Assembly: GCA_030248295.1 (NCBI GenBank)
Contig: JASANH010001367.1
Coordinates: 186,001 to 250,000 of the forward strand
Origin: Mesodorylaimus sp. YZB2_4
Taxonomy: Eukaryota > Nematoda > Enoplea > Dorylaimida > Dorylaimidae
Direction of reading: 5' to 3'
DNA length: 64,000 nt
Notes under the pieces: model-generated
What the model saw: only the letters and a program-made list of their open reading frames with translations
What the model was told of the DNA's origin: nothing
The model's database searches: none
Shown here: piece by piece, positions 604 through 37,191 of the stretch
How the letters are laid out: each line of letters opens with the position of its first letter
Position numbering within the stretch: position 1 is the stretch's first letter
Translations under genes and position numbers: made by a program

Positions 604-2343
604 TCACTTGGCATCTTGATTTTCATCTTTCCTCTTCCACGCTAACTTCTTGACGCTCTTCTTGCAGCATCCACCGCAAATAGCGACCAACAATAAAGGC
701 ATTTGAAGGAAGGTCAGCATGCCAGCTCCCAGCCATAATCCTGCCTCGCCTCCGATGTCTGCGATCATCTGATCGGGTGTCTTGGAATCATCTTGTTGGA
801 ACTCGGTGTATTCCATTTGAGAGAACGACACCAAGATGAAGATCAGATCGTGAACGGGTATGCCAGCGTCGAAACCGTACTTGTACAAATCCATGGATGT
901 GGCTCGGATCGAATAGCGCCAGTCTTCGCAAGGTCGTTGGCACTTTTCGCGGCAGGATTTTAGGTTGCTAACGATGGATGAATCAGATGCAATGCCGCGA
1001 ACGCATTTTAGATCCTTGACTTTGCAGAATCCCTTGGTCTCGTTCAGGACTTTGTCAAAATACAGACTCCTATCGGCTGGAGGAAGACAATGGCAAGCTT
1101 CTTTCATTGCTTGGGCGGCACAATCGTACAGGCACGATTGTTGGGTATAATTTACGTTGAAGATTTTGAATTCAGGATAAGATTCGTTGTCGACGCACAA
1201 TTGTTGATAGGGATGTTGGAAACTTTCAAAAACTTGATGTTGGGCTGCCAGATCGACTCGATAATATGTGCCGGGCGACAAAACGATGCTCTCTCCGCTT
1301 TGATCGACGTTGTACTTGCGTTGAATCCTCAGATGAACCCCGTTGAACAATGGTGATAGGTCGGGCGACTTGGGATACCACATAGAGCGTACGTTGAACG
1401 TCAGGACCAAAGCTTGCGATTGAACTGTCTGCTGTCGGCCATTCACATCGACGACGTAACACTTGCCTAAAATGAGTTATTGTACAGATTCACATAGCAA
1501 AGGGCAGTGGGAAAGTGAAAAGCCAAGGTTCAGTCCAAACCCAGTGCAGCTATTTGCTCTGCCTCTAAACACACTCACATGCCTAGATTTCGGAAGCCCA
1601 AAAGATATTCAGCACATGTGGCTTGGGCACTTACCATGTTCAGGGTCGAGTACCTCTCTGGTGATATTTTTGCACGGCAACTTTTCGCTCATGAAAACAC
1701 GAAATTCGCAATAACGAACATGGTTGTCAAGATCGACCGTTGCCTTCTTGAAAAACTCCTCGGCGTCTTGGCTGCTTTCCATTATTCCACCCGTTTCATT
1801 GTACCTACGCGATTTGGACCGCATGTTTCTCAAAGCCGACGGATCGACGTGAGCCGTTGGATCGGATGATTGCTCGGGTAACGGACCGGTCAAGTTGCCA
1901 GTGGCAAAGAAATCTGTGTAATCCCAGAGGATGCCCATTTCTTCTTTTAGAGCGATAGCATCATTTTCGGCCGATGGTGTCTTATTCAAGTATAAGCTGC
2001 TGACGAAAGCGGTCGGGCAGATGTAGACAATCGGAAAGTCCATGGCTGGCACGGTAGTGATGGTGTAGGTGGACACGATTGGACTATTGACGTAATTGCT
2101 GATCGTCTTGTACAACTGCCAAATGAAGAGGACCGTACATAGGATAAGTAGTACCAACCAAAACACTTTTGCCGATTTCGATTTGGCATCCGTAAAAGCT
2201 TTGAAACCGTAAATATCCACAGTACGAATAGTTTCATCTTTCTCTTTCTTCTTCCTTTCTTCTTCTGCCCTCTCTTTTTCTTCCTTGGCAGCAGCCGCAT
2301 TAGCTGCAGCTTCTTGGTCTCGTTTTTGAATAAAATTTATCAT
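604..2343 (-). CDS. DEG/ENaC-family cation channel, copy A
   Basis: Predicted amiloride-sensitive-type sodium channel subunit of the plasma membrane. Two exons, 1635-2343 and 604-1466, give 523 residues. The ATG at 2343 was chosen because the longer frame would start at a TTG, and this start gives an N-terminus like copy B. TM1 (VFWLVLLILCTVLFIWQLY) is followed by the post-TM1 segment FPIVYICP, a large cysteine-rich ectodomain (CLYDCAAQA, CHCLPP, CREKCQRPCEDWRY) and a second helix starting at GLWLGAGM, the pore and filter region. The short C-tail is lysine-rich. The HG gating motif before TM1 reads YG, and the filter ends in Gly rather than Ser. The gene is divergently paired with copy B. Copy A lacks the intron that copy B has just before TM2. 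Ion selectivity and partners cannot be told from sequence. Confidence 0.92.
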
Positions 2344-3727
2344 TTTTCTTTTTCTTTTCGACCCAACTCTACAGTAGACAAAGTTTCGTCGAGTAAGTGT
2401 CTCGAGTGTAGGCAATTGACTACCCGTTTATGGTTCAAACAAAACCGACCTAAACGGGCTGCAGGCTAGAATTTCGCAAACTGGCAGCACTTCATGCGAT
2501 TCGCCAATATGTCATTCATTTTTAGGAGTTGAGGAAACTTAAATTATCCGCCTTCTCCAATGTGACGGACGAGAAAAAGGTGAAATGAAAGAACCGGTTG
2601 CTAATAAACCAACTAAACGCACTTGCTCAATCCCTCTGCTCTAAACATGTACGCCGACTTACAGATTGGCTTATTTGACTTGTCACTTTTTTTGATATCA
2701 GGTGCTGATCGTGTGCAAATTGTATTTAAACGAGTGCATCATTCAGACATAAGATCAAAGCGACCGCGGCTGCCCTTATTTCAATGGCGTCTATCTAATT
2801 GTGAATTAGGCTTTAGCATATTTTTTGCATATGGAATCTCCTCGGCAGTACAGTAGAGTATACTGTTCGAACAGTTCAGCAAGTCTTTGCTGCTAGCACT
2901 GGATCGGCATTGTACGTGTCATCGGCATGTTATCAGGGAAGGACGGCCATCAGAATACGCAGACATTCAAGTTTCGCAGTGCTCAATGAGCACGAACTGC
3001 ACTTTTCAGACATGCCTAAAACATAAGAAAAAACTTCCATTTGAGCAAATTAGTAATGGAAAACAGTTTGCGTCATTCGTTTTTTCCAGGTTTGAAGGCA
3101 CACCTTGTTGAGAGCCTAATGGAGCGTAGTCTTTTTGTCGGATTCCATGCACGGGCAAGACTTGACACGAATAAACTATTGTCACAACTGATCGCCCGAG
3201 CAGCAACTAAAGTATTGTTCCATAATGAAGTCAAAACATCTCCTGACACCAGCCATTAAGAAACAGGATGCGTGGGCGACGTCCCCGTCCTCTCGCCTAT
3301 GATTCGAATTAGCAGTGACGCACATAAGGTTACTGTAACCGCACTTCTGCCATGTCGACTTTTCTAAGTTAAAGAAAAATCTAAAAGTCGTTTTATCAAG
3401 GAATGTTAGGACGTCCTGAAAACACTCCAAATGGTAAGATGGGGGTGAATGCATTAGAGCGCGGTGAACAGTTCTCGCCACTGTCGTCATTCCGACTTTC
3501 GAAAAGGCCCGAGGCAAGTTTCCGACGACCAATCTAGTTTGAAAAGTGTGTTCGTACAGTTTGTACACTAGGTTCGAGAAAGAGAGGCACAAACGTTTCC
3601 GTTCTCTCATTTATGCCCGGTCTAACGATAAGAGGGAGCATTGTATTGGTTCAGTGATCGAGCTATTGCCCAGTAAAGAATTCTGCTTAAGGTCATACTG
3701 ATCGCAAAAAAGAAAAAACTATAAAAA
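2344..3727. promoter_or_regulatory. Divergent intergenic region between two DEG/ENaC genes
   Basis: The region of about 1.4 kb separates two head-to-head paralogues, so it must hold both 5' regions. I could not single out a TATA box or known motif with confidence. A minus-strand open frame at 3182-3610 resembles nothing and was not called. Confidence 0.4.
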
Positions 3728-5340
3728 ATGTCGACCAACGGAGCTTACAAATCTGATAGCTATTTCGATACGGTTGACAAAAACGAGCGTAAGCTGGAAT
3801 CGAAAAATAAAAAAGATATTGATGAGACCATCAGAACGATCGAATTGGATGGATTCAAATCGTTCTTCTCAGCGACCACTTTTTGTGGCAAGATGTTCTG
3901 GATAAGTTTACTCGTATTTTCACTCAGTATCCTTCTTTATCAGTTGGTCTACACCATCAGCGACTATATAAACAGCCCGACTATTTCCACCTTCACCATC
4001 AAGACCAACGATACGCTCGACTTTCCGACTTTGTATGTGTGCCCTGCTAGCTTGGTCAGTCAAGCTTTCTTGAATCGAACACCAACAGCGGAAAACGATG
4101 CCATCATGCTCAAGTCGGAAATGTCGGCCGTATGGGATTATACGGAATATTTGGCCACTGGTAATCTAAGTTCTGCTTTCGAATCGAGCCATGAACAGGA
4201 TTTGAAGAAGGGATACACAAGCAATTTGGATGAAGTGGATGTGCAGCAGTTTTGGCTCAATGCTACAGAACCCATGGACATGCATCTGCAACACTGCGAA
4301 TTCCGCTCCTTTGTCTTCCATCAGCTCGAATGCTCTGCCATAGCTAGCGAAGTGTTGGACCCGGAGTATGGCAAATGTTACGTGATCGACTTGGGCGATA
4401 TGCAACAAACTGTGGAAGGACAAGGTCTGCAGCTCGTATTCAACGTCCAATCCAATACCTACCCGACCTCCCCAAAGCTGGCCCCCGTTTTCAATGGAAT
4501 TTACGTCAGTATCGTCAATGATTTTAACCCATCTGCTGGTGACTCCATCCTGCTAACACCGAATACATTCACCCGAGTCGACTTGGCCGTCCAACATCAA
4601 GTCTTCATGCACCAACCGTCGCAAGGGCAACCGTGCGTCAAGACCGAGGACGCTGGCGATTCTGGATCGGAGGATGACGATGATGACAATGATGACGCAC
4701 CCGAGTTCGAGTTCCAAGTCTTCAATACCAGCTATTCTCAACCGTCCTGCAAGTACGACTGCGTGGCTCGAGAATTCGCAGAAATCTGCAAGTGCTTGCC
4801 ACCCATCGATCAAAGTCTGTACAAGGAGGACGCGTTCAACAATACCGATGGTTTCTGTCGATACAAGCACCTGGACTGCATCAAGAACAAAGTGCACAAT
4901 GACCAAGAAGTGGCTGATCGAATCAGTGCATGCCGAGATCAGTGCTTCGTTCCCTGCAAGGACTGGCGTTACGATGTCCGCACTACGAGCATGAACTTGT
5001 ACCAAGCCGGCTTCGACCCATCACAGCCCGTAAAAGACATCATCTACGTCACGGTGGCCTATTCGCACATGGAGTACTCCAAGTACACTCAAGCCAATTC
5101 TATGGAGCCGGTAAGTAGCATAGATGGGCTTACACTTCCACCGAATAAGTTCACTTTCTCTCTTTTCAGGACGATTTAGTGGCCAACTTGGGCGGTCAGA
5201 TTGGTCTTTGGCTCGGAGGCAGTATGCTTACTTTGATCCAAATTCCGCTTTTCCTCTTCGCCTTCTGTAGCGTTTCGTGCTTCCGAAAGACCAAGAAGGT
5301 TGCTGTAAAACGAGGACAAACGGTCACTCCCAGCAAGTAG
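3728..5340 (+). CDS. DEG/ENaC-family cation channel, copy B
   Basis: Paralogue of the divergent copy A. Exons 3728-5110 and 5170-5340 give 517 residues. The intracellular N-terminus contains DETIRTIELDGFKSF, matching copy A. TM1 is MFWISLLVFSLSILLYQLVY. The ectodomain shows the family cysteines (CKYDCVAREF, CKCLPP, CRDQCFVPCKDWRY) and NFT/NTS-type glycosylation sites. The second exon encodes the pore helix GLWLGGSMLTLIQ and a short basic tail. The G-G-S filter is close to the canonical G/S-x-S. The HG motif reads DG. An acidic run (EDDDDDNDD) sits in the ectodomain where copy A has none. Family membership is clear; the physiological role (mechanosensory, acid- or peptide-gated) cannot be inferred. 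Confidence 0.93.
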
Positions 5341-5799: not shown

Positions 5800-7411
5800 T
5801 CAGTAGGCGGCTTTCAGTAAGTCTTCTGTCATGTCTTTCAATTCGCTCGCTGTCCTCCGTTCGTGATAGTCGGGATTGATAGCACCTTTCAACATGGGCT
5901 TGACCAGTTCGGGTACATCTGACCAACAGTCTGGCTCGCATGGCACCAAGTTAGCATCTAGACTTTCTCGTTGTTGAAGTAGTTTGCAACACACCTGAAA
6001 TGAGAATACAGTGAGAGCATTCACAGATGATGCAAAAAATAGTACTTGAATAGACGCCCGAGGGCGACCCTCGATATGCCAGAACCACTGTTGACTGAAA
6101 AGTTCACACAGACTGGCGCCCATTGAATAGACGTCACTTTTGGTAGGATGCCTGAGTGGACCATTGGCGCAGGCGAATTCGGGTGGCTGGTACATGGCAG
6201 TACCTTTAATATTTGTCACAGCTGTAACCATCAGTGCTTTGAATTCGGACAAGCCAAAATCGGCGATTTTCACTTGAGCCAAATCTGTCGAAACCTGAAT
6301 GCGGGCATGTCAAAACATGGACTCATAAAATGCACTTTCCTGTACCAGAATGTTGTTTGGACTTATGTCCTTGTGACAACACTTCCGGCTGTGCAGGTAG
6401 GCCAGTCCTTGCCAGCATCCGATGGCAATCTTTAACTTTTCTCCGAGCGATAGGGCGGGATCGCCTTGGCAAAACCGTCTCATGGCACCACCAGCAACGT
6501 ATTCGGTCAGCAACCATAATCGCTTCTCGTCAGCGGCACCTCTAACGTATCCGACGAACTTTACTAGGTTCGGGTGGTTTAATTTTCTGAAAATAAAAGT
6601 CGACTTTTCAGTCTGATTCACAATCAAAGGCTAATATACTCTCACTTCATGATATTCACTTCGGCCATGAACATTGTCAAGGCGAAGCTATCATAGCTGG
6701 TAAACTTTTTCACGGCTACTTGCTGACCCGAGTACGTGCCAACATGAACCACAGCGAAGGCTCCGTTTCCAATGATCTTCCCAATCTCGATTTCGGATGG
6801 ATTGATCCGGCTTTCTGAAACAATATACGTTAGTAGCTCTCTCTTCAAGTAAAAATGGAGTATGCGCGTCTTACCATCCGATGCAAGCTCAGGTGCTTCT
6901 AATCCCTCTGGCGTGACAACTTGATCGCCAGCGGATCCTAACCCGGACTCAACCGTCAGTTCTGCCACATGTTGTTGAACAAACTTCTCCTCCACTTCGT
7001 CTTCTCCAGCAGACGTGAAGCAGTAAAACTGCTCTTTTTCAACAACAGAGTCCAATGACGACAATATGGTGTTGCCGAATGAAATCGCCTCATTCTGATC
7101 AGAGCTTTGCAAAATATTCGCTACTTTCGCCAACTGCTCAACACTTTTTGATGGTAATATTTGGAGGGAGAAGACCTGATATGTGTTTAATATGAACATG
7201 GTCGCAAGCAGGCCTGTCATTCTTAACTTACGTATTGTCTGTGTGTCAAACTCGGTTGAGCTTCGATCACCTCCACATCGTCCTCATCGACTGCTCCATT
7301 TTCTAATAATGCGGTCAAATAAACCTCGGGGTCGAAACTTTGACCAAGTTTGGTGTTAAGAAATTTTCGGCATGCGCCAAGAACATTTTCTTTCCCACCC
7401 TCAAAGGCCAT
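5800..7411 (-). CDS. CARD-containing TKL-type protein kinase, copy 1
   Basis: Six exons (7232-7411, 6875-7175, 6646-6814, 6346-6586, 6046-6294, 5800-5994) give 444 residues. The first about 85 residues look like a CARD: a helical stretch with YLTALLENGAVDEDDVEVI, then a hydrophobic helix around VFSLQILP. A linker leads to a kinase domain from about residue 165 with glycine loop GNGAFAVV, VAVKKF lysine, catalytic loop HKDISPNNIL, DFGLS, and PPE in place of APE. The catalytic Lys and both Asp residues are present, so activity is plausible. HRD is changed to HKD. The start at 7411 is the first true ATG; the frame upstream opens with GTG. Copy 2 lies just upstream with matching intron positions, so this is a tandem duplication. 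The family suggests a death-fold signalling adaptor kinase (RIP/IRAK-like role), which is inference. Confidence 0.85.
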
Positions 7412-8311
7412 CACTCTTTGGCTTTACGTCGAGCGAAATACTACAAGTGAGCTGGAAGAGCTGACGCAACTGCTACCCAAAAGAGGCAACAGAACCAGCC
7501 GCCTGGTTCAAAACACGGAGAAAAACCAATCTAGGAACGGTTGCGTAGGCATTGCATAGTGCCATCCGGATCGATACAGCTTTGCTGGAAGGGACGCGTG
7601 TAATCAATGCTCCGCCGCCTTTCAAACTGCATTTTATATTGTCACTTCTTTGGCCAACGACTCGAGGCGTAATACAAGTCACGGCCTGATAACAAGAAAA
7701 AGGCTAGTTCCAACGAAATAATGAGGCTGCAAACACTACTTTTGTTGCTGACTATGAGCTGTCTCCATCCTCTGTTCACCCAGCAGGTACGTGGCTCAGC
7801 CACTGCATTGAATCTTGTTGAACGACAGCTTTGCAAGCTAGTTTTCTATGGCGGCATTGAATAGTGCAGGTGGGCGTTAATGAAAGCCCGTAGGGACGAT
7901 AGTAAGCAAAGTGGCAGGGAGAAGTTCAGGCCAATGTCAACTCGAGCTATGCTCTGACTGCATAAGAGCTCACCAAACATTGATTATGCAACTCATGAGT
8001 CATCAGCCGGAATGAGCGAAGCAAACGGAACAAATTTTACATGCTGTATCAGCTGACACACCTACACTGGCACTTTTTTCCGAAATCAGAGAAATGGAAA
8101 ACCGATTACTCGCCTTGAACAAATCAAACATAAGACACAACTCTGGCTTAGCATCACCAGGACCTCGCAGATACCTCTGCAGGAGTACCTGCTAGCAATC
8201 TGTACAGAGCGAGTAATCGAGCACGTTTCTAAGGACAAGAGCACAAGTTTTTATGCATGAGCATCGCAGGCAGGGACTGCTACTGAAACGGTAATAACGT
8301 TACCGAATCTT
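7412..8311. other. Intergenic region between tandem CARD-kinase genes
   Basis: About 0.9 kb upstream of copy 1 and downstream of copy 2. Several short frames exist, but none has a family match or consistent splice partners. It presumably holds the copy 1 promoter. Confidence 0.4.
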
Positions 8312-10336
8312 TTAGAATTTCAGGCATTTGGGATTATAGGAGAGAATATGCACTTTTTGGTCGGGCGAAATAGTTTTCCCTTTTAGCAGCTGCTCCGTCA
8401 AATCGTACATTTCAGCAGCAGTCTTCCGATTCTCAAAATCGGGTTTGATTGCGTGGGACAGCAACTCCTGCACATCTTTGGGAATGGCCTCCCAACAATC
8501 CGGGTACGTCACAATCCTTTTCGTTTTAAAGATAGAGATTTGATTCAATAGGGCCTGGGTGACCTAAAATGTGGCAATGAATAAATCGAATCAAATTTGA
8601 AACATGAATACTTACAGCGGGGTACAGTCGAGGTTCGCCATTCTTGTTCCTCCACAAAAATTGCCCGCTAAACAGTTCACATAGGCTCGCTGCCATGGAA
8701 TAAACATCGCTCTTGCTGACGTGTCTCTTGAGCTGGATCACTTCTGGTGGATAGTACATGTAGGTGCCTGCCCCGCTAGTCCTCATCGTTGACATTACAG
8801 CCTTGAACTTCGACAGCCCAAAATCAGTTATCTTAACTTCCAGTACTTCGGATTTATCAGATACTGAAACCTAAAACGGCTTCAGCTTGCGGTGCGGTAA
8901 CGTGAAGCCATCAGTAAGGATTGCTGTTAAACCTAATTGCTAATTGCCCTAATTGCTCTAATTGCTGTTAAAAAGTGGTTCTGTTTATTATTTAGGGTGA
9001 TCTTTCTGCGCAAGGAAACCACTTTGAATTGGGTGAAAAAGACCTGGAAGAGGTGCAATGTAGGATTGGACGATCGTGTGCTGGGACTCACCAGAATGTT
9101 ATCAGGGCTAATATCTTTGTGGCAGAGCTTCTTTTCGTGCAGATACGCCAGCCCACTCCAGCATTTTGAAGATAATACAACCTTTTCCCTATTGTTCAAA
9201 GCCACTGAACCCTGACGAGAAGGTGGAGTGCAGAAACGACGCATTGAACCAGCAACGTATTCCATAACCAACCACAGATTCCGATCCTCGGGTTCGTAAA
9301 CGAAAGCATAAAATGTGACCACGTTTGGATTCTGTAGGCTTCTGAAAGGTTTGAATCTACAGCATGAGCTTGAAGACGTGGACAATATGTCCATGGAAGG
9401 GATGCACCAGCAGGCCTGGTAAAGTATTCCCCCCCCCCCCCCCAGTGATAGGTCTGAACCGATGGTCTGACCCATGTCTCATCGAGGTCACCTACTTCAT
9501 CGTCTTGACCTCAGAGAAAAATGTAGCCACCGCGAATTCATCGAAATTGTAAAATTTCTTGACAGCTACCTTCTCGTTTTGGTATGTGGCTAAATAGACT
9601 TCTGCAAAGCCACCACGAGCAATTTGTCTATCCATGGTGACGTCACACGATCTAATCCGGCATGCAGGATGTTCCACGTGGTCAAGAATCGATACAGCAT
9701 CTGGCTCCTGTCCCACTCGTCTGTCCAAAGCTTGGTCATCAGATGTTTCACTAGTCAGACTCGCCCTGCTGTCTCGGGATCGCATTCGTGATTTCGGTTG
9801 TGGTGTACTCATACAACCAAAAAACAAGGATTTGAAAATGTAGAGCGGATTTAAACTCGCGAAGTCTTTTGTTTGGCATTCTTCCAACCTGGCTGTGAGG
9901 CTGGGGTCGAAATAGGAGATATAATCATGTGGAACACAAAAACACAGTTCGTCAGCAGCATGTTCCTCTTCGCGTAGTATCAATTCCAACGTCTGGAATC
10001 CATTCAGTCCTTTCTCTGGCAGGAAAATAATAAAGAGGAACTGCAAAACAGAAAAAAGTGCGATTAGTTGTATCCCCCAACGTAGCCGCGCCTTACCTGA
10101 AGTTTTGACAAGTAATCCTCTTCATTTTGGATAGTTTCTACCTCTTCTCTGTTCAATACACCCTTTTCTTGTAATTTTTCTAGAACTTTTTCCAAAACCA
10201 ATTGATGGCAAGCCAGAGTGTTTAGAAATTTGCGATATACGATTGACAGTATGTCCACTGGATTTGAGAATGGGAGAGATTTATAAGTTTGTTCTTCTCC
10301 CTCAATATCCTCAAAATCTGAATTAGGCTCGCTCAT
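8312..10336 (-). CDS. CARD-containing TKL-type protein kinase, copy 2
   Basis: Five exons (10097-10336, 9496-10040, 9092-9341, 8616-8870, 8312-8563) give 513 residues. The N-terminal CARD is clearer than in copy 1: VLEKVLEKLQEKGVLNREEV followed, after an intron, by FLPEKGLNGFQTLELIL, the typical last CARD helices. A Ser/Arg-rich linker of about 100 residues (STPQPKSRMRSRDSR) precedes the kinase domain near residue 213: GRGG-type loop ARGGFAEVY, VAVKKF, HKDISPDNIL, DFGLS, and PPE. Introns at the end of the CARD exon, after the TMK codon, after NIL and before VTQ correspond to those of copy 1. A 15-C run and a short TAATTGC repeat sit in its introns. The role is inferred as death-fold signalling; no substrate is suggested. 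Confidence 0.87.
8934..8965. repeat. TAATTGC short tandem repeat
   Basis: Four copies of TAATTGC, two adjacent and two separated by two to three bases, lie inside the third-to-fourth exon intron of CARD-kinase copy 2. TTGCTGTTAA flanks the array on both sides. Confidence 0.7.
9429..9443. repeat. Poly-C tract, 15 bases
   Basis: Uninterrupted C run inside an intron of CARD-kinase copy 2. Similar runs occur at 21430, 44058 and 60268. Confidence 0.85.
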
Positions 10337-19047: not shown

Positions 19048-21177
19048 TCAGTCGACGTAGTATTTGGCGCCGCGCCGCCTGAGACAAAGGAATAAAGCCA
19101 CGACTATAGAAGCTAAGAAGGACAGGAGAGTGACACCGAGCACCAGACCTATAAGCAGTGTAGGCACGCAGTAGACTTGATCGAGGGCAGTGTCCGTCGA
19201 AAGGGCTTGGCTCCTGGGGGCTGACAGTTCAAGGCTGGAGGTCAACTCATTGTCGAAGTCCTCGTAGGTGCTGAGAGGCGGCGCGCGGACATCCCATGTG
19301 CCAACGAAATTCACGTCGTGGGCTGCTCGGACACGGCGAAGGCGGAAGGGGAATGTAGACTCGAAGTCGAAACGAGCACTGGGTTGATTGGGATCGGATG
19401 GTCGAGAGATATCGGGGGTTGGGCGGGAACTGGGGGGACGGCCAGTCGGGTTTGTGCCCGTGGTTGTAATGGGAGAGGGTTGCTGTAAGTTTGTAGACGA
19501 TGGTTGGCTATTTGGTTGGATTGGGGGTCCTTGTGGTTGAGCCTGAGGCAGGGGCTGCAGTGGCCCTTGGTTCGAGACACTTGACGCTGCGGGCAGATTG
19601 AATGAGTTGATGACTGGTGCTGGCGAATTCGGGGTAGGGGCCGGTGGAGCTGGGGGCGACGGCGGAGCGATGCTAGATGGGGAGGTGGTGGATGTGGTAA
19701 TGTGGGACTGACTTTCCGTCTGCTGCCTGGTTGATGACCTGCTTGACAAAGTATGTATTGGACGCGAGGTGGTGAGAATGTGAGGCGTGGTTTGCAAGCG
19801 GGAAGTTTGAGGCGGTGAATGTGTGCGCGTGGTGGTGACGTGTCTTGACGAAAGCGTCGATGTAGATAATGGGCGCGTGGGGCGAGTGGATGGGCGTGGC
19901 GAGGATGACCTGACGGATTGGCCCGACGATAACGAAAGCAATGATCCAACGGCTTGAACTGGTCTACCAGCATCGACTAAGACGGGCAATGCACCAGCAA
20001 TTGTTGGTTTGGGCGGGGAGGCGCTGGGGGGCTGGGCGCTGGGCGAAGACTTGACCCGAGAAGTACCAGAGGGTGGTGTGCTTGCGGGTGGTGGTGTGCG
20101 TGGCGGGGTAGACGCTCTGCCTGCGGCCGATCCGATTAGCGGGGCTGGAGCAATGGTTGCTGAAGAGCCACCGCCGAGTCCACTGGGTTCAGAGCATTGT
20201 GGTCTGGGACAGTCTTCTCCAGGTTCTTTGATGGAGATGGAAATTTGGCATTGGAAAAAGAGGGCTGCTCTGTCAGCGAATTTGAAAATGTGTGCTTCTT
20301 TCCCTAGAGGACCAGCTTACATGGACTGGGTGCACATTCCTCTCACCACACCTCGGCTTACCTGCCATCAAGTCGGATATGTACTCCAGATTGTTCAGCA
20401 CGTACTTGTCCAAGGCGCATCCTTGTTCATTGACCACCTGTATCCTCGACGTAGAACCATCATCAACAAAACAGGAATGGACCAGCATGCAAAATATATC
20501 GATCGATTCCGTCTCGCATGTCCATTTGTGATAGACCTGTTGACCGATCACACCAAACTTGATCGGTTCTCCATTCGGCCCTCCATCCAGAATGTCGTAT
20601 CGGCACACAGGCATGGGAACATTCTGGGTCTGGAAGGCAGTCGTGATCTCGGATACTTCCACCTCCTGACTGACCGTTTTGTCGGCCTCCATGTAGAAGC
20701 ACTGGACACTGTAGGCTCTGTCCACCTTGGTCAAGAACTGAAAGAGGAGCAGTCACAGCCTGGGAAAAGTTTTCTCAAGGAGACGTGATCAGCCGTATGC
20801 TGTAGGATAGATGCAGACTGATCGAGCAAGCCCGTCATGAGTATTACCTGAGGATGGAACGTAATCACAACTGAGACACCAATAAAGATTCCTTTCGGAT
20901 TCAACGATCGCTGCCTGTCCACACCGCACGTGGCAAATGGTAAGGATATGCTGGCAACTTTCTTTCCACTCTGATCAGTCCTACATCCTGGCTCATTGTA
21001 TCGACCTTTCACGAAAACGTGCCCCTCGAAATTGTTGCGAGTGTTGAAATTGACCGTGATGGTGTTGGGTCCGCATTCTATTTCGGGATCGCCTTCAACT
21101 CCATTATCGATTGGGATGGCAGAAATGAGAGAACATTGCGCAAGAATGATTGCACACAAGCACTTAGTACTCAACAT
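19048..21177 (-). CDS. Cuticlin-like ZP-domain transmembrane protein 1
   Basis: Three exons (20848-21177, 20362-20737, 19048-20303) give 653 residues. A signal peptide (CLCAIILAQCSLISA) leads to the mature start IPIDNGVEG. The ZP domain follows the nematode CUT/CUTL pattern: ITVNFNTRNNFEGHVFVKG, CRTDQSG, FYMEADKTVS, TTAFQTQNVPMP, VYHKWTCETES, GCALDKYVLNNLEY, FFQCQISISIKEPG. A long proline/serine/threonine-rich linker of about 250 residues, likely O-glycosylated, separates it from a furin-like site (RLRRVR), the motif GTWDV, one transmembrane helix (LLIGLVLGVTLLSFLASIVVALFL) and a short basic tail. Such proteins are cleaved at the cell surface and polymerise in cuticle or apical matrix. It is the longest of the three paralogues here because of its linker. 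Function in a specific cuticle zone is not inferable. Confidence 0.93.
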
Positions 21178-27566: not shown

Positions 27567-27813
27567 ATTTTTTGTAAATGCTAGGTATTGTACAGGAAGA
27601 AACTGTGCCCTGTCTAATATGTGATTGTTGGAATGCCAGTCTGATATGCATGGAGCTCCTCGCGGAGAGGCTAGACCACACTTAGGGGTGAAGACTGTTT
27701 GAGTCAAAAGTGAGCACATCACACTGCTTGCACATATTTACTGTATCAGAATCACGTTTGAAGCATTTGCATGCGGTGGTCTCGAGTGTGCAGTCCAGCT
27801 TGCACCCCGTTCC

Positions 27814-29539
27814 ATGAAGTCACGCCGAGTGGGAAATGAAGCGAGCGTGGCCGCTTCGATCAGCGAACGTGTGCCGTACGAATCGAAGAAAAGCATCCTT
27901 AGCGAACATACAGAAACGAACGGGGTGGTTTCTCAAGTGATATGGGAGAATCCGTCGTCGAAACAAGGTTCCACCAGCGTGGCCGCATCGTTGACAACGA
28001 AGACTGTGAGGAGGACGTCGATATCGATTGAAGAATCCACCATCGAAAAGAAACGCCCGACGAATACGTCTGATTACTTCATAAGCCCAGGTAGCACTCT
28101 CATCAAGCTATCGTCAGTCGCATCGACCACTGCGTCAAGATCGGGTAATTCCACTCTCAGCAAGACTCCGAAAACTGCTGCTTCAGTCAGAAGCGAAAAG
28201 CCCAAATCGAAAAAATCATTTTTCTCTTTTCGGAAATACGATCCTGAGCCGGGCTCTTCAGACTTGCCTAGCGTAGCTGTCGTGACCAGATGCATGGACT
28301 CCAGCGATTCGCTCTCGCTCTCAAAACCGATGCCAGTATTACTGCCTCAAGCGATCAGCTCCCGCGCTCCAATCACTGACGACGACGATCACGACCCCGG
28401 TGCATATGAGAAAATGGGATGGGAAATTGGAGAAGCCAAAATGCCTGTCGTGTTGTCCAAGGCGGAGAAAAAGAAAAGGCGCGCTCATAAACAACGTCGC
28501 AAGTATATTATCATCGGTGGCATTATTGCACTCGCAATCCTGGCATTTGTCATCATCGGAATCGCGATCTATGTCAGTCTGTCCATAAGAAGTTCAAGTA
28601 ATGCAGTAGCGACGACCGTACTCCCGCCCTACGTGGGCAAGGCGAGTCTGCTCTACGATCAGGTATGTCTGCCAAACCTTACCTTGAGAAGCAGCAAGTC
28701 ATCGACGAAACCGGAATGCGTGGTTGGATCGCCTCCCAGCGTGGATTCGTGTCGACAAGGCGTGTGCGCTAAGTACCAATACGAAGTGATGGTCAGGGAC
28801 GACAAAATTCGACTCGAAGACAAGAGCACAATCGTGATGCAAGAGGGCAAACGAGGAAAATCGAGCGATGACAAAGCGCTGTGTCGATTTCAACATGAGA
28901 ACGTGGAACGATTGGGTGTGTGCTCGATGGAAGGCAACTGCGATCAAGCCTACGTCGAGGGGCATGACGATCCATCGTGGTACGAGGAAGCCTCTTGGAG
29001 CGATGGGTGCGACGAGCTGAATCCGTGTTGGAATGGGAGCGGGCTTGGACATCTTCTGGACGACATAAAGAACGGAGTAACGCGAGAGAACTGTTTGGCA
29101 AAAACAAATACGGCTTGTGAGCAGCCTGGAGTGAGCGCCGTTGTCTGGATGCAGCATCTCAGGTGCAAGCATGGAAAGAATCAGACCACGGAGGGTCGAT
29201 GCGAGGGTATGCGCTTTCGGACAATTCTCTTTTGCACTCCTCATTCCATTCATTTTAGGCTTACCGTTCAAATTATGGTTGTGCGTCCAATGCGTATCAC
29301 AAAGACCGCTCATCTGCGAGAACGGCACCAGTTCGGTCGGCCAGACTGCTTGCACTTATACATGTCCCGGAAACAAATCCAAGTTGAGAATGCCAAATGG
29401 AGCCAAATGCACGACACGGCTGGGCGACCAGGGTCATTGCTATTTTGGAATCTGCTTCAAAGTCGATGGGGTGATAGATGAAACGACTCGAGGGATGATA
29501 GTAGATGGGTGCCCAAAAAAAAGTGACGTGATGCTCTAA
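27814..29539 (+). CDS. Type II membrane protein with cysteine-rich ectodomain, copy 1
   Basis: Two exons (27814-29206, 29259-29539) give 557 residues. I do not recognise the family. A Ser/Thr/Lys-rich cytoplasmic N-tail of about 229 residues precedes one transmembrane helix (about residues 230-258, IIIGGIIALAILAFVIIGIAIYV). The ectodomain is rich in cysteine: CVVGSPPSVDSC, CAKYQYEV, CRFQHENVERLGVCS, DGCDELNPCWN, VVWMQHLRCKHGKN, then GLPFKLWLCVQC and a terminal block NGAKC...GHCYFGICF. That last pattern is loosely like the cysteine-rich blocks of ADAMTS proteins or tick salivary proteins, which may be coincidence. The convergent gene downstream is a paralogue with the same intron position. A surface or shed extracellular role is inferred only from topology. 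Confidence 0.8.
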
Positions 29540-29784: not shown

Positions 29785-31381
29785 TCACTCGAAATCTTCG
29801 TCTTCCTTCCTTCTTTGACATTCGGCCATTGATGGTATGCCACCAGCAGTCTCATCGAGCAGGAAGCACTGACCACCAAAACAGTAAGCTTCTTTGGTTC
29901 CGGTTTCGTCACCTTGGTATTTGCACTTCGCCCCGTCTTTCAATTTTTGAACTTGCTGCTTCGCGTCGTTTGAGCATTTTATAGCGCATTCGCTTTCGTA
30001 AATCGCAGTGCCATTCCCGTTGCAATAACCTTCTTCTAAGGAATAATTGCATCGTTGACACAACCACATCCGCAAAGGCAAACCTGAGAAGAAACAGTCG
30101 AGTACAGTCCGTGCAGAAGAGTGTCGATAAGCAAAGCTTTTTACCTCGACAAATTCCAGATATGGTCCTGTTTTTGCCAACCTTGCATCGCAAATGTTGC
30201 ATCCAAATTACGGCCTGTTGCTGCATACTGCATGGTTCGGTTTTAGCTTGACATTGTTCTCGGCTCGGCATTTTCCATTCAGTTTTCAAAGCATTCTTTT
30301 CATCATTCCAGCATGGATTCGGTTCATCGCAATTGTCCTCCCATCGGCCTGTCGAGTCCCAACTCGCTCGGACTTTGTCATCAATATCACCGTCGTATGC
30401 CAGAATGCATTTGCCGTCATTTGAGCACACGCCGATTTGATCTCCATCAATACGACACAGCGTACGAGGCCCATCCTCGGCAGTTGGTGGGTTAGGCGTG
30501 ATCTGGTATATTCGACTGTTGTCCAAATATGCTGTGTCTGCCATTTCTTTGCGAATAATGTAGTCGAATTTCGCACACCAACTCGTCGTGCACGAATTGA
30601 TACCTGGCGCAGAACCAACGAGGCACGACCGTTTGGTATTGTGCAGATGTTCTAAGCAAACGATTTCGAAGACTGTTTTCACCGCTCTCTTATAAGGGTG
30701 CAACGCAGACGTTTCCATCGAGGCCGTGTGCTTTTCTTGCGGCGAACTGCTGCGTAATCGGGGCTGTTTGGTCCGCAGACTAAGAGGTTTTCTTAGTATT
30801 AGTCGTGACTTGAAGTATCCAAAGTAGACGCCCAATCCGACTGCAACGAGAACCAACACGACTACTATGATTGCCGCAGTAATACAGCAGCACTTTTTAT
30901 TGCGCGTACACTTCTTCGACATCGGTGTCTTTTTGGACTCGCGTTCACTTGGTCCGGCTTCTTCATAACTGGGGTATGGGATGGTCGAAACTAAGCTTTT
31001 CTGAGAAGCTTGCTTGGCTTTAACCGCAGCTTTCATCCTTTCACCTCCATCGGACGAATTAGATTGCCCAGTGATTGAAGACGATGTCGTCCAAGCATGT
31101 TTTTCATATGTGCCAGGGGGATCTTGAATGACGCTTGGCTTTCGGGACGCTGACAACTCGCCGAAATCAAGAAATCTATCTTTCGTCAGCTTGATATTAG
31201 AGCCAACTGACCCTCGGCTGCTCGTACTTTTTGGCAATTTCTCAGGCTGATCGGCGAGATAGAGACCTTGTGTACCAGCTTTCTTCGTCATAGGTTGCAT
31301 CGATTCCGATTGGACGTTGTCTTTTCCTCGGATCGAACTGCTCTGAATCTCGCCTTTCGAGTCTTTTTGTTCGTTGACCAT
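29785..31381 (-). CDS. Type II membrane protein with cysteine-rich ectodomain, copy 2
   Basis: Paralogue of the convergent gene. Exons 30145-31381 and 29785-30083 give 511 residues. The ATG at 31381 was chosen because the longer frame begins with TTG. A charged cytoplasmic tail of about 164 residues precedes a helix (CCCITAAIIVVVLVLVAVGL, about residues 165-190). Shared ectodomain landmarks with copy 1: CLVGSAPGINSC, CAKFDYI, CRIDGDQIGVCS, DNCDEPNPCWN, VIWMQHLRCKVGKN, GLPLRMWLCQRC and DGAKC...AYCFGGQCF. The splice site between the CRG codons and GLP is at the same place and phase in both copies. Cytoplasmic tails differ, so selection seems to act on the ectodomain. Function unknown; the acidic C-terminus (KEDEDFE) is specific to this copy. 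Confidence 0.8.
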
Positions 31382-32275
31382 GTTTTGAGATTTCACGTTC
31401 AATAATCATACAGATCGCGAGATTAAGAAAATAGCTAGGAGCCACTATAAACACTACAAGCACTTATGAAGAAGTCTGGAGAAACAGTGAGGCATGTCCG
31501 TGCAATATCCGACCTTGCCCACTGTACAGTACACTGCAGCAAAGAATGCCAATCAAATAAGCCTTGCTGTAACGCGCCTGGTGTGCTTTCTCGAAATCAA
31601 CAATCAGTGAAAGAGCAGAGTACGCAGTGTGCACCTTGCCAATGTTGCCCCCTTCCCACCATCTTCCCAGCATTATCAAGCTTGCCTTAATTTACAAAGT
31701 CTGAGGACGCCTTGCGCACGGCAGACAAATGAAATGTCTTCTTCTTTGCTCAACTTGGCCCTTTGCAAAGGTATCATGCATCAATGTGTCATGCCTGAAA
31801 TCCGTGTTAATAGACTCGAAGTCGTGTCTTGTTTTACGTCACGATGTGAAATTCTTGGGCCCTTGCGCATTGCCGACCCTTATTATTCGAACACTACCCG
31901 GTACCGCCTAGTTTCTACTGGTCGACCATGCACCAAATACTTGGGTCATCTCTTTTCGTCATTTCGCAACTGGCTGCAATGTAACGCCCGTTCCGTAATG
32001 CGAACTGGGCGTCCGTTTTGGACGATAGAACAATGGGGTCCATGCCAAATGCGCAGGATTGGCATACGCGCAGACCATCTTGACGGTCTCGGACGATAAT
32101 AGGGCATGTGGAAGACACCTAGGCCAAAAATGAGGCCGAATGTCATGCCCGGCGGCCTAACGCAAATCTAGGTTCTCCTTGCCGGAAATAATTTAGAACG
32201 GAAGACACAGAACGATGAGTCGGCCACGAGTGACGACCGGATGCAATGTCTAGAAGCGGTTCCGTTTGGGTCCCC
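31382..32275. other. Divergent intergenic region, type II protein copy 2 / ZP gene 2
   Basis: Roughly 0.9 kb with no recognised gene. Plus-strand open frames near 31629-32099 have no family resemblance. It should contain the promoters of both flanking genes. Confidence 0.35.
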
Positions 32276-32283: not shown

Positions 32284-32405
32284 TCCTGACCAGCAGGGAC
32301 ACAGGCATCAGTCGACACAGACACCACTCGAAGAACACTCCAGTGAATCTGATTTAATTGCTATTTCTACTCTTCTCGTTCGAACTGTTACCGAATCTGC
32401 CGACG

Positions 32406-33848
32406 ATGCGCACGATCGCGGCCCTCTTCTTGCTAGTCACGTTGGCCAACTGGGTTCGATCGATCCCAATCGATAACGGTGTGGAAGGCGAGCCAGAGAT
32501 CGAATGTGCCGCCGACAGCATCACTGTCAATTTCAATACAAGAAACGATTTTCAAGGACACGTTTATGTCAAGGGGCGATTCGCTGAGCAAGAATGCCGA
32601 AGCGATGAGGGCGGTCGAAGAGTGGCTGGTATCAAACTACCTTTCACCTCTTGCGGCACTAAGCGAGAGCGTTCGCTGAGTCCGAAGGGCGTATTCGTAT
32701 CGAACACTGTCGTCATCACTTTCCACCCTCAGTTTTTGACCAAAGTCGATAGGGCCTACACTGTTCAGTGCTTCTACATGGAGGCCGACAAGACGGTCAG
32801 TCAAGACTTGGAAGTGTCTGAAATTACGACCGCTTTCCAAACTCAAACCGTGCCCATGCCTTTGTGCCGATACGAGATCCTAGATGGTGGCCCGACTGGC
32901 GAGCCTGTCAAGTTCGCCACCATCGGTCAACAAGTTTATCACAAGTGGACGTGCGAGACCGAGACAGTGGACATCTTCTGCGCTGTGATCCATTCATGCT
33001 TCGTCGACGATGGGGCGGGCAACAATGTGCAGCTGCTGGACGAACAAGGATGCGCACGGGACAAGTTCTTGCTCAACAACCTGGAATACCAGACTGACCT
33101 TATGGCAGGTAAGGGCACCGCGCAGATTCAAATTCGTAGGCCGCTAACTCACTTTTATCCTGTTTAAGGCCACGAAGCTCACGTTTTCAAGTACGCCGAC
33201 AAGCCAGCCCTCTTCTTCCAGTGTCAGATTTCCATTTCGATCAAGGAACCAGGCGAGCAGTGCCCGCGTCCCCAATGTCCCGAACCTGGTGGTCTTGCTG
33301 GCAGCTCAGGAGGCTCTGTCGCTCCCGCTCCCCCAGGATCGAGGCCACCACCGAGAGCGTCCAGTGCTCCACCGGTCAGGGCGAGTACACCCGCCGCAGC
33401 TCGTGTTGCCACCACGCCCCATGCTGGATCAACACCCTTGGCTCCCGCACCCGTGGCTGTCGCTGGCAACGAACGAGCCGCTCGTCGTGATTTTGCTCAA
33501 TTCCCATTCCGATTTAGGTACGCTCGTGCGGTGGCCGATGCTGAAGCTAAGCAAGCTGCGGCCAGAAGGCGGGCGGCAGCAATTGCCTCCGAGCCAATTG
33601 GAACGTGGGACGTGGCGGCCCAAGCCATTACCACCTTGGAAATCGACGATGACCAAACCGCGCTGCCAGATTCGCTCAAGAGGCTGCAAACTCAACAGGC
33701 CTACGCCCGTCAAGAACGACTACGAGATGGCAATTACTGCTTCTCGCCCATTTCGTTCGGAGTGCTCATAGCTTTTATGGCCATTTCGGCCCTAGCGGGC
33801 ATGCTCGTCGTCCTCGTCTGCTGCTTCAGGAGAACAAGGAAGTACTAA
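32406..33848 (+). CDS. Cuticlin-like ZP-domain transmembrane protein 2
   Basis: Two exons (32406-33108, 33169-33848) give 460 residues. The signal peptide is RTIAALFLLVTLANWVRS and the mature start is IPIDNGVEG. The ZP domain is complete (ITVNFNTRNDFQGHVYVKG, CRSDEGGRRVAGI, FYMEADKTVS, TTAFQTQTVPMP, VYHKWTCET, FLLNNLEY, FFQCQISISIKEPG). A short Ala/Pro-rich linker leads to a dibasic-type region (RFRYARAV), the GTWDV motif followed by ITTLEI, a transmembrane helix (SFGVLIAFMAISALAGMLVVLVCC) and a very short basic tail. It retains only the intron at the MAG codon; paralogues 1 and 3 have one or two more. Expected role: secreted or shed apical matrix component of cuticle. It converges on ZP gene 3. 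Confidence 0.94.
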
Positions 33849-35138: not shown

Positions 35139-37077
35139 TTATTTCCTAATGGCACTTGATCGCCTCATCCGACAGAGCAGCATAGTTGAGACCATGCCGC
35201 CCAGGAATGCCACGGCTGAGACGATGATAAGGAAAGCTAAGGAGAAAGTGGATAGGCAATAGGAATTAGGCACGGCTAGGTTCGAGTGGTCGGGTGATTT
35301 GATATCGTTCAGTGTGCGCAGTACTTCGGAGTTGTCACTTCCAGTATCAATGTCTAAAGTGGTGATTTGCTGTGAGCTGACATCCCACGTTCCCAGAGTG
35401 TCCACGTCCCCATGCTCCTCGAATGGCACATCGTCCGGCGCGGATCGAACACGACGAAGAAGGCGAGAAGCCAAGGCGGAGAAGTCGCGTTTGATTTGGA
35501 TAGGCCTGGGGTCACGTCTTGTTCCGTTACTGGGTGGTGGCGAGAGTGGTGTCGTGGGTGATGTCGGCGTCGAAGAATCGATCACAGGGGAGCTCCCAAC
35601 GGTTCCGGGAGGTGAGGTTGGTCTGGAGGTTTGCGCTGGTGTTGATGCAGTACCCACAGAAGCCACCACATCCAAAAGGATCCTTGTGGCTGGAGGTGCA
35701 GGAAGTGGATTTGAAAGAATACCACTTCCTTGGCCAGCCCCACCGGGTTCTGGGCATTGGGGTCTGGGGCATGGCTGGTTTGGTTCTTTGACAAGAATGG
35801 TGATTTGACATTGGAAGACTAGGGCTGGCTTATCGGCGTACTTGAAAACGTGCGATTCGTGTCCTAGAAGCCAAGCGAGATTAGGTTAGTGCAGATATAA
35901 ATTTCTGGGAACTTCTTTCACGAACAAAGGTTATGGCTACAAACTGGTTCCGCGAGGCCATTACGTCTTGCAGCCGGTCAAGTCGTTCTACCTTGGCTCA
36001 AGGTTGGCAGGTCTCATCACTGTAAAGGACCAGTCCCCAAAGATAGCCCAGTCCCTCTCCGTTTATCAGTAAGCAAGTGATGTAGTCTAGTCTGTAAGCA
36101 TGACTTACCCGCCATCAAATCACTCTGATACTCCAGGTTGTTCAACAAGAACTTATCCAATGCGCAACCTTGCTCATTCAGTAACTGGACATGATTTCCA
36201 GCACCGTCATCAACGTAGCATGAGTGTACCAAAGAGCAGAATATATCCGCAGTCTCCGACTCGCACGTCCATTTGTGATAGACCTGTTGACCAATGGTTG
36301 CGAATCTTACTGGCTGGCCGGTCGGACCTCCCTCCAGGATTTCGTATCGACAAATGGGCATTGGAACGTTTTGAGTTTGAAATGCGGTCGTGATCTCGGA
36401 CACTTCCAAGTCTTGGCTAACGGTCTTGTCTGCTTCCATGTAAAAGCATTGCACCGTGTACGCGCGATCGACTTTGGTTAGAAACTGCGAAAAAAGTTAA
36501 TGACACTGACTCGACGTTATCTTAGATACAAAGTGCGGGCAAGTACCTCATGTTGCTGTGTGCTGAGGGTATGTACATTTAAAACTGACCAGGCAGCATA
36601 ATGGTACAATGACTCAGCAACCTTACCTGGGGATGGAAAGTGATGACGACTGTGCTCGACACATAGACACCCCTCGGACTGAGCGACCTCTCCCGCCTCG
36701 TACCACACGAAGAGAAGCTGAGTTTGATTCCAGCCACACGCCTTCCTACTTCATCGCTTCTACAGCCGGCTTCATTGAATCGACCTTTGACGTAGACGTG
36801 GCCTTGGAACTCGTTGCGTGTATTGAAATTGATTGTGATGCTATCTGATGAGCATCTAAAGTGGACGAGATCACAATCATCTGACACTTGAGACAATATC
36901 TTGGGGCCCTTCTTGGGCTCACGCTCCCATCTTCCCTGCAGCACCGGCCTCAAATCTGACCATAGGAAGAACACACACTCACTCGATTTCCGGCTCTCCC
37001 TCCACGGCATTGTCGATGGGGATAGCCCTGAGTGCGGGCAGGAGCAGCAGGACACACAGGCAGGACGGAAGTTGCAT
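35139..37077 (-). CDS. Cuticlin-like ZP-domain transmembrane protein 3
   Basis: Four exons (36983-37077, 36627-36855, 36109-36484, 35139-35863) give 474 residues. Exon 1 encodes the signal peptide (LPSCLCVLLLLPALRA) and IPIDNAVEGEPEI. The ZP domain continues with ITINFNTRNEFQGHVYVKG, CRSDEVGRRVAGI, FYMEADKTVS, TTAFQTQNVPMP, VYHKWTCESET and FLLNNLEY. The linker is Thr/Pro-rich, followed by a furin-like site (RLLRRVR), LGTWDV with ITTLDI, a transmembrane helix (FSLAFLIIVSAVAFLGGMV) and a basic tail. It has the most introns of the three paralogues; the third exon is 376 bases, exactly as in ZP gene 1. Expected to be shed and to polymerise in apical extracellular matrix or cuticle. Confidence 0.94.
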
Positions 37078-37191
37078 GTTGACTGGTTGGGCGACGGGCC
37101 ACCTCGACGTCAAATAACCCGTCTAAGTGTGGTGCCTAAGTTTTCGGCGATGACCGACTAGACTAGTCCGAGTAGTGGAGGCCAATCTGGA

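What the first reader, a model, noticed from the sequence alone, without database searches (positions are those of the whole stretch)
5800..10336. Tandem CARD-kinase genes with N-terminal CARD
Two adjacent genes each encode a CARD-like fold followed by a TKL-type kinase. RIPK2 has the reverse order (kinase then CARD). Nematode CARDs are known to me mainly from the CED-3/CED-4 apoptosis pathway, so a duplicated CARD-kinase module would suggest an undescribed death-fold signalling branch.
Basis: partly seen in the sequence, partly recalled or inferred. Interest (0 to 1): 0.75.

Follow-up and report, generated by a model that had tools for sequence, protein, structure and literature searches.

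The report
Nematode kinases with front CARD domain
A nematode genome carries a small family of at least four intact genes that join an immune and cell-death adaptor domain (CARD) to the front of a protein kinase, a candidate link between nematode CARD sensors and kinase signalling.

Summary
Window 5800-7411 (gene A, 444 aa, six exons) and 8312-10336 (gene B, 513 aa, five exons), both minus strand, are intact and 38% identical. Each has an N-terminal CARD-type region and a C-terminal kinase domain. B passes the Pfam CARD cut-off (28.3 bits; cut-off 23.9). A does not, but its N-terminus is homologous to B's (E 3e-6). The same nematode genome (133 cuticle-collagen and 27 TTR-52 places) holds a second pair, C and D, with the same layout. 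All four genes share four introns at identical positions and phases, one inside the CARD, so CARD and kinase belong to one ancestral gene. Of 25 PDB hits (E<=10) of a profile of the four N-termini, 23 are CARD proteins, one below E 0.001. The kinase is broadly tyrosine-kinase-like but not placed in RIP, IRAK or MLK; the catalytic-loop lysine is serine in all four. Likely role (inferred): CARD-driven clustering on a CARD-bearing sensor; candidates in the genome are CED-4-like, caspase and RIG-I-like genes. No fold prediction ran; spread across nematodes was not testable.

The parts
5800..7411 (-). Gene A coding span, 444 aa; exons 7411-7232, 7175-6875, 6814-6646, 6586-6346, 6294-6046, 5994-5800 (stop TGA 5802-5800)
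   Evidence: Gene model from open frames and GT-AG sites; stop and ATG; four introns shared with B, C and D
7232..7369 (-). Gene A CARD, first part (residues 15-60, exon 1)
   Evidence: BLASTP with B N-terminus E 3e-6; leave-one-out profile E 1.3e-8; no direct Pfam CARD match
7095..7175 (-). Gene A CARD, second part (residues 61-87, start of exon 2)
   Evidence: Aligned with B, C and D; weak on its own (leave-one-out E 8.8)
5833..6788 (-). Gene A protein kinase domain (residues 170-434, exons 3-6)
   Evidence: Pfam Pkinase 139.7 bits; VAVK lysine 196, HKD 288, DFG 309
6352..6375 (-). Gene A catalytic loop HKDISPNN: usual lysine after HxD is serine
   Evidence: Sequence and motif table
8312..10336 (-). 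Gene B coding span, 513 aa; exons 10336-10097, 10040-9496, 9341-9092, 8870-8616, 8563-8312 (stop TAA 8314-8312)
   Evidence: Gene model, ATG and stop
10097..10207 (-). Gene B CARD, first part (residues 44-80, exon 1)
   Evidence: Pfam PF00619 31.4 bits over residues 44-104
9969..10040 (-). Gene B CARD, second part (residues 81-104, start of exon 2)
   Evidence: Same Pfam match; not found by the leave-one-out profile
8405..9635 (-). Gene B protein kinase domain (residues 216-483, exons 2-5)
   Evidence: Pfam Pkinase 152 bits; VAVK lysine 241, HKD 336, DFG 361
9098..9121 (-). Gene B catalytic loop HKDISPDN: usual lysine is serine
10041..10096 (-). Phase-0 intron inside the CARD of B; its counterpart in A is 7176-7231 (56 bases each)
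   Evidence: same alignment column in A, B, C and D

Best explanation
A and B belong to a nematode gene family (at least four members in this genome, in two neighbouring pairs) that encodes proteins with an N-terminal CARD, a linker and a C-terminal tyrosine-kinase-like protein kinase. Most likely mechanism (inferred): the CARD recruits the protein to an activated, oligomerised CARD-bearing sensor or adaptor, or to a CARD filament. This brings kinase domains together so that they phosphorylate each other or a downstream substrate. It is RIPK2 logic with the domain order of IRAK/Pelle. Shown here: gene structure, CARD homology, kinase homology, protein-level constraint, common origin of the four genes, and presence of candidate CARD partners in the same genome. 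Inferred: the CARD-CARD partner, kinase activity, and the pathway served (defence or cell death).
For: Intact spliced models. Pfam CARD in B (31.4 bits) and C (28.0 bits) above the cut-off of 23.9, and D at 21.2 bits, E 3e-4. A four-sequence profile against the PDB: 23 of 25 hits at E<=10 are chains of CARD proteins (RAIDD 3.6e-4; the others 0.041 to 0.69: APAF1, CARD9, ICEBERG, CARD8, CARD11, caspase-1, CED-4, ASC), the other 2 glutaredoxin. Leave-one-out profiles recover each first CARD exon at E 5e-12 to 6.3e-6, while the best non-family frame over the four runs has E 0.45. Four introns at identical columns and phases in all four genes. Kinase domains with G-loop, VAVK, HxD and DFG. Candidate partners: one NB-ARC place with a CARD-like exon, caspases, two RIG-I_C-RD places. 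DRH-1 CARDs signal in C. elegans and the downstream factor is unknown (passages of PMC11260149).
Against: No fold prediction (queue full at 15 of 15 attempts). A alone has no Pfam CARD match. The second CARD half is weak. Single-sequence and two-sequence searches of the PDB gave no or marginal support (B alone best E 0.13, a MOAP1 chain; A+B profile 3 hits, RAIDD 0.0089, MTA9 0.54, BCL10 0.64). The catalytic-loop lysine (HRDxK) is serine in all four (HKDISPxN), so phosphotransfer may be weak or absent and the domain could act as a scaffold. Candidate partner CARDs score below the Pfam cut-off (CED-4-like 18.8 bits, caspase 14.8) or not at all (both RIG-I-like fragments). No RNA, expression or interaction data.
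Confidence: 0.62

Rival explanations
1. Divergent IRAK/Pelle-type kinases whose N-terminal domain is a death domain rather than a CARD, working in a Toll/IL-1-like cascade.
For: Same domain order (N-terminal death-fold, C-terminal TKL kinase; recalled for IRAK/Pelle). IRAK4 chains align over most of the kinase, profile positions 10-275 or 10-276, about 101-103 bits.
Against: Pfam at E<=10 returns CARD for three of four N-termini and Death, DED or PYRIN for none (the filters drop most matches above E 0.1). The PDB profile hits are mostly CARD proteins (23 of 25). IRAK4 is not the best kinase match; CTR1 (130.5 bits), a JAK chain, NEK7, TNNI3K and one B-raf chain score higher.
Confidence: 0.1
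2. The kinase part is a pseudokinase scaffold: the protein is a CARD adaptor that brings others together without phosphotransfer.
For: Serine replaces the catalytic-loop lysine in all four CARD members, whereas the related kinases E and F keep lysine (HKDIKPEN).
Against: VAVK lysine, HxD aspartate, following asparagine and DFG are all retained in four of four. Tyrosine kinases also lack lysine at that place (the JAK and Trk-like rows have alanine), so its loss is not proof of inactivity.
Confidence: 0.25
3. The CARD exon belongs to another transcript and the kinase starts later; the fusion is an annotation artefact.
For: In C the first intron is 1252 bases (exon 1 ends at L031 1601, exon 2 starts at 2854), longer than the 56 bases of A and B. 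No RNA data are available here.
Against: Same order, strand, intron position and phase in four genes on two contigs. In B and C one exon carries both the second CARD half and the kinase N-lobe.
Confidence: 0.03
4. An orthologue of RIPK2 whose domains were swapped in order.
For: CARD plus TKL-like kinase in one protein.
Against: Order reversed. No RIPK chain among the best 60 of 2062 PDB matches of the kinase profile. In the survey in PMC9573974 a CARD was found only in vertebrate RIPK2 (passages).
Confidence: 0.05

Closest known systems
RIPK2 (RIP2/RICK)
   Same: CARD and a TKL-type kinase in one protein; CARD-driven recruitment to NOD1/NOD2 (passages of PMC9573974) is the logic proposed here
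   Different: Kinase first and CARD last in RIPK2, the reverse here; no RIPK chain among the best 60 of 2062 PDB kinase matches
IRAK/Pelle family
   Same: N-terminal death-fold domain followed by a TKL kinase (recalled)
   Different: CARD instead of death domain; IRAK4 is not the nearest kinase
DRH-1/DRH-3 and MAVS-type CARD signalling
   Same: CARDs in nematode immune signalling; this genome has two places with the RIG-I C-terminal domain
   Different: DRH proteins are helicases with no kinase (recalled); C. elegans lacks known MAVS, TBK1 and IRF3 homologues (passages of PMC11260149)
CED-4/APAF-1 and CED-3 apoptosis module
   Same: Nematode CARDs; an NB-ARC gene with a CARD-like exon and caspase genes are present in this genome
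   Different: No kinase in that module (recalled)
MOS-like kinases of Trichinella with an MLKL-like N-terminal bundle (PMC5015942)
   Same: Nematode kinase with a cell-death-type helical N-terminal domain that family searches did not name (passages)
   Different: MLKL-type helical bundle by modelling rather than CARD; MOS-like kinase

Membership tests
CARD domain (PF00619) | Profile score over the curated cut-off | tested here: met
   B 28.3/31.4 and C 28.0 bits against 23.9; D 21.2 (below); A no match: 2 of 4 members over the cut-off, 3 of 4 matched at E<=3e-4
CARD domain (PF00619) | Six-helix death fold | not tested
Death domain (PF00531) | Profile match of the N-terminus | tested here: not met
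   No Death, DED or PYRIN match listed at E<=10 for the A, B, C or D N-termini
RIPK2 | N-terminal kinase, C-terminal CARD | tested here: not met
   CARD first and kinase second in A, B, C and D
RIPK2 | Kinase domain groups with RIPK1-3 | tested here: inconclusive
   No RIPK in the best 60 of 2062 PDB matches; no RIPK row was available for the tree
IRAK/Pelle | N-terminal death domain | tested here: not met
   CARD instead
Tyrosine-kinase-like (TKL) group | Kinase domain groups with TKL kinases | tested here: inconclusive
   Best match CTR1 (TKL by recall); A-F fall on the CTR1/TK side at 93/94 (drawn open) in a 15-row tree
Active protein kinase | VAVK lysine, HxD, DFG | tested here: met
   All present in 4 of 4
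Active protein kinase | Catalytic-loop lysine of serine/threonine kinases (HRDxKxxN; recalled) | tested here: not met
   Serine in 4 of 4 (HKDISPxN)

The most novel reading that the evidence does not exclude
The CARD-kinases are the missing relay of nematode RIG-I-like receptor signalling: the tandem CARDs of DRH-type receptors nucleate CARD-kinase assemblies, which take the place of both MAVS and TBK1 in a lineage that lacks them.
Probability: 0.12. Interest if true: 0.88.

Novelty: new variant of a known kind. Interest (0 to 1): 0.6.

Why it matters
How nematode CARD sensors pass on their signal is open: DRH-1 signals through two CARDs, yet MAVS, TBK1 and IRF3 homologues are unknown in C. 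elegans (passages of PMC11260149). A CARD fused directly to a kinase is an obvious candidate relay and can be tested by binding and knockout. It would also mean that CARD-kinase fusions are not confined to the RIPK2 order. No title or abstract start listed by my searches describes such a fusion in nematodes (capped listings of an open-licence library).

Tried and rejected
Pfam CARD against the whole genome gave 0 matches at E<=0.001 in 1 of 1 genome and rang in 0 of 14 control genomes. It missed even the CARD of B, because exons are searched apart, so it says nothing about absence.

E (contig 54) and F (contig 487), the nearest other kinases, were checked for a CARD: in the listing (cut at 40 rows) no frame of L033 appears and the best of L034 has E 20. 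They are relatives without a detectable CARD in the roughly 5 kb held upstream of each kinase.

A query with the CARD of D against the genome found 4 places at E<=1: both exons of D and the first exons of C and A. It missed B, so its sensitivity is limited.

A spliced-leader check (SL1 plus GTAA, up to 2 mismatches) gave 0 matches, so SL1 could not be used to place the worm. The phylum rests on 133 Col_cuticle_N and 27 TTR-52 places (that these families are nematode families is recalled). The species stays unknown; the small-subunit rRNA search did not complete.

NACHT gave one weak place (29.4 bits) of unknown gene, so no NOD-like partner is claimed.

Broad kinase classification: the 15-row tree used A-F, three PDB segments and 6 of the 8 other kinase frames translated (the PKD-like L015 and second ERK-like L023 frames were left out). 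It is too small to assign a TKL family. Names such as LKB1-like, ERK-like and Trk-like are mine from reading the sequences, not from a call. Of the 20 stretches fetched, four (L031-L034) were read; the other 16 entered only the open-frame scans. In one search frames of eight loci (L001-L006, L008, L021) were dropped before naming the best non-family frame; these loci lie inside the window or L031, whose frames were kept. The 9490 frames include such overlaps.

The linker intron of D (L032 3780-3906) is the least certain splice choice; it is not one of the four shared introns.

Literature: nine listing searches. Passages only were read of PMC11260149, PMC9573974, PMC7456325, PMC2575513, PMC11747288, PMC5015942 and PMC4883820. 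Absence from print is not established.
Full report
What is there. Window 5800-10336 holds two minus-strand genes. Gene B (10336-8312, five exons, 513 aa) lies upstream of gene A (7411-5800, six exons, 444 aa), with 900 bases between the stop of B and the start of A. All modelled introns are GT-AG (51-221 bases), both frames are intact, and the proteins are 38% identical over an alignment of 463 columns (BLASTP E about 1e-89). The window is contig 26, 186001-250000, of an unnamed 145-Mb assembly of 1067 contigs. The organism is a nematode: 133 places match Col_cuticle_N and 27 match TTR-52, and the window has a cuticlin gene (CUT_N and CUT_C). The species is not known to me.

Is the N-terminal domain a CARD? 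For B yes by curated threshold: Pfam PF00619 28.3 bits in the whole protein and 31.4 in the N-terminus alone (cut-off 23.9). A has no direct Pfam match, but its N-terminus is homologous to that of B (E 3e-6). A search of the genome with B gave 55 matches at E<=0.001, of which 19 lie in A, B and four other genes here called C, D, E and F; 84 of 135 candidates were scored, so family size is a lower bound. I modelled C and D, neighbours on contig 12, from loci L031 and L032 (574 and 534 aa). They also carry a CARD: C 28.0 bits, D 21.2 bits with E 3e-4, below the cut-off. Against all PDB sequences, B alone gave nothing significant (7 hits at E<=10, best 0.13), a profile of A and B gave 3 hits (RAIDD 0.0089, MTA9 0.54, BCL10 0.64), and a profile of all four gave 25 hits at E<=10: 23 chains of CARD proteins (RAIDD 3.6e-4; APAF1, CARD9, ICEBERG, CARD8, CARD11, caspase-1, CED-4 and ASC between 0.041 and 0.69) and 2 glutaredoxin chains. 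Pfam listed no Death, DED or PYRIN match at E<=10.

Guard against circularity. Profiles built with one gene left out still recovered the first CARD exon of the omitted gene, at E 5e-12 (D), 3.5e-10 (C), 1.3e-8 (A) and 6.3e-6 (B), among 9490 open frames of the held DNA; the best frame outside the family over the four runs had E 0.45. The second CARD exon was not recovered with significance (D 0.31, A 8.8, C 21, B none), so helices 4-6 are the weaker half of the case. Within the CARD the three codon positions agree at 0.467, 0.587 and 0.322 over 450 codon pairs, the pattern of protein-level constraint.

Do CARD and kinase belong to one gene? In the four-protein alignment every gene has introns at the same four columns and phases (column 80 phase 0, inside the CARD; 386 phase 2; 474 phase 0; 562 phase 0). 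A and D each have one further phase-1 intron in the linker. In B and C a single exon runs from the second CARD half into the kinase N-lobe. This is hard to reconcile with separate transcripts, though RNA data were not available.

The kinase. The window proteins match Pkinase at E 1.5e-40 (A) and 2.7e-44 (B). A profile of the four kinase domains finds 2062 PDB sequences at E<=1e-10. The best 60 are led by plant CTR1 (6.2e-37), then a JAK chain, NEK7, TNNI3K, B-raf, IRAK4 and others; no RIPK chain is among those 60, the only ones shown. In a tree of 15 rows A-D group with E and F (98/94), A-D alone at 92/89, on the side of CTR1 and the tyrosine kinases, on an open branch. So 'TKL-like' is fair, but RIP, IRAK or MLK membership is not shown. 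The VAVK lysine, HxD and DFG are kept in four of four, but the loop reads HKDISPxN: the lysine typical of serine/threonine kinases (recalled) is serine in all four CARD members, whereas E and F have HKDIKPEN. Activity is therefore open.

Relatives without a CARD. E (contig 54) and F (contig 487) show no CARD in the DNA held, about 5 kb upstream of each kinase. A query with the CARD of D found only exons of D, C and A (4 places at E<=1) and missed B, so the genome may hold more such CARDs than an exon-by-exon search can see.

Possible partners. The genome has one NB-ARC place with an upstream exon that looks like half a CARD (Pfam 18.8 bits, below the cut-off). It has six caspase-domain places; the gene on contig 30 has a CARD-like exon at 14.8 bits, also below the cut-off. 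Two places match the RIG-I C-terminal domain; N-terminal fragments upstream of them looked CARD-like to me by eye but the two pieces tested gave no Pfam match. There are six Death-domain places and one weak NACHT place. These are candidates only, and the names CED-4-like, CED-3-like and DRH-like are mine from the family matches.

How it most likely works. By analogy with CARD proteins in general (recalled), an activated sensor with exposed CARDs would nucleate CARD-kinase assemblies, and the crowded kinase domains would transmit the signal by phosphorylation or by scaffolding. In C. elegans, DRH-1 signals through two CARDs to induce an immune programme while MAVS, TBK1 and IRF3 homologues are unknown (passages of PMC11260149). 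A CARD-kinase would fill that gap, but I have no binding or genetic evidence, and could not ask whether C. elegans has an orthologue.

Compared with the known. RIPK2 has kinase then CARD (passages of PMC9573974), the reverse of this, and the same survey found a CARD only in vertebrate RIPK2. IRAK/Pelle has the same order but a death domain (recalled). Trichinella has another kinase with a cell-death-type N-terminal bundle, MLKL-like by modelling (passages of PMC5015942). Nine listing searches showed no title or abstract start on N-terminal CARD-kinases of nematodes, within capped listings of an open-licence library.

What could not be done. No nematode proteomes other than this genome were on hand.

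Noticed in passing
window 7721-7786, + strand: Between A and B, on the other strand, a short frame beginning with a signal-peptide-like sequence (MRLQTLLLLLTMSCLHPLFTQQ) ends at a possible splice donor (CAG|GTACGT): maybe the first exon of a small secreted protein.
   Followed up: partly
window 27703-29481 (+) and 29909-31405 (-): Two tail-to-tail frames encode related proteins (35% identical over a 244-column alignment, E 2e-33) with conserved cysteines; the + strand one has no Pfam match at 0.001, the other was not tested.
   Followed up: partly
window 604-2427 (-) and 3725-5340 (+): Two neighbouring DEG/ENaC-type channel genes (Pfam ASC for the frames 604-1476 and 3725-5179; the rest by eye) beside the CARD-kinase pair.
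   Followed up: no
window 19048-20316 (-), 32358-33848 (+), 35139-37109 (-): Three cuticlin-like genes by eye, with similar low-complexity tails; one frame (32358-33167) tested, with CUT_N and CUT_C matches.
   Followed up: no
L033 and L034 (contigs 54 and 487 of the genome): Related kinases E and F keep the catalytic-loop lysine (HKDIKPEN) that is serine in the four CARD-kinases, and have no detectable CARD.
   Followed up: partly
L060 (about 2727-3335) and L061 (about 2886-3070): Frames upstream of the two RIG-I-like helicase regions look by eye like CARD helices, but the two pieces tested gave no Pfam match.
   Followed up: partly
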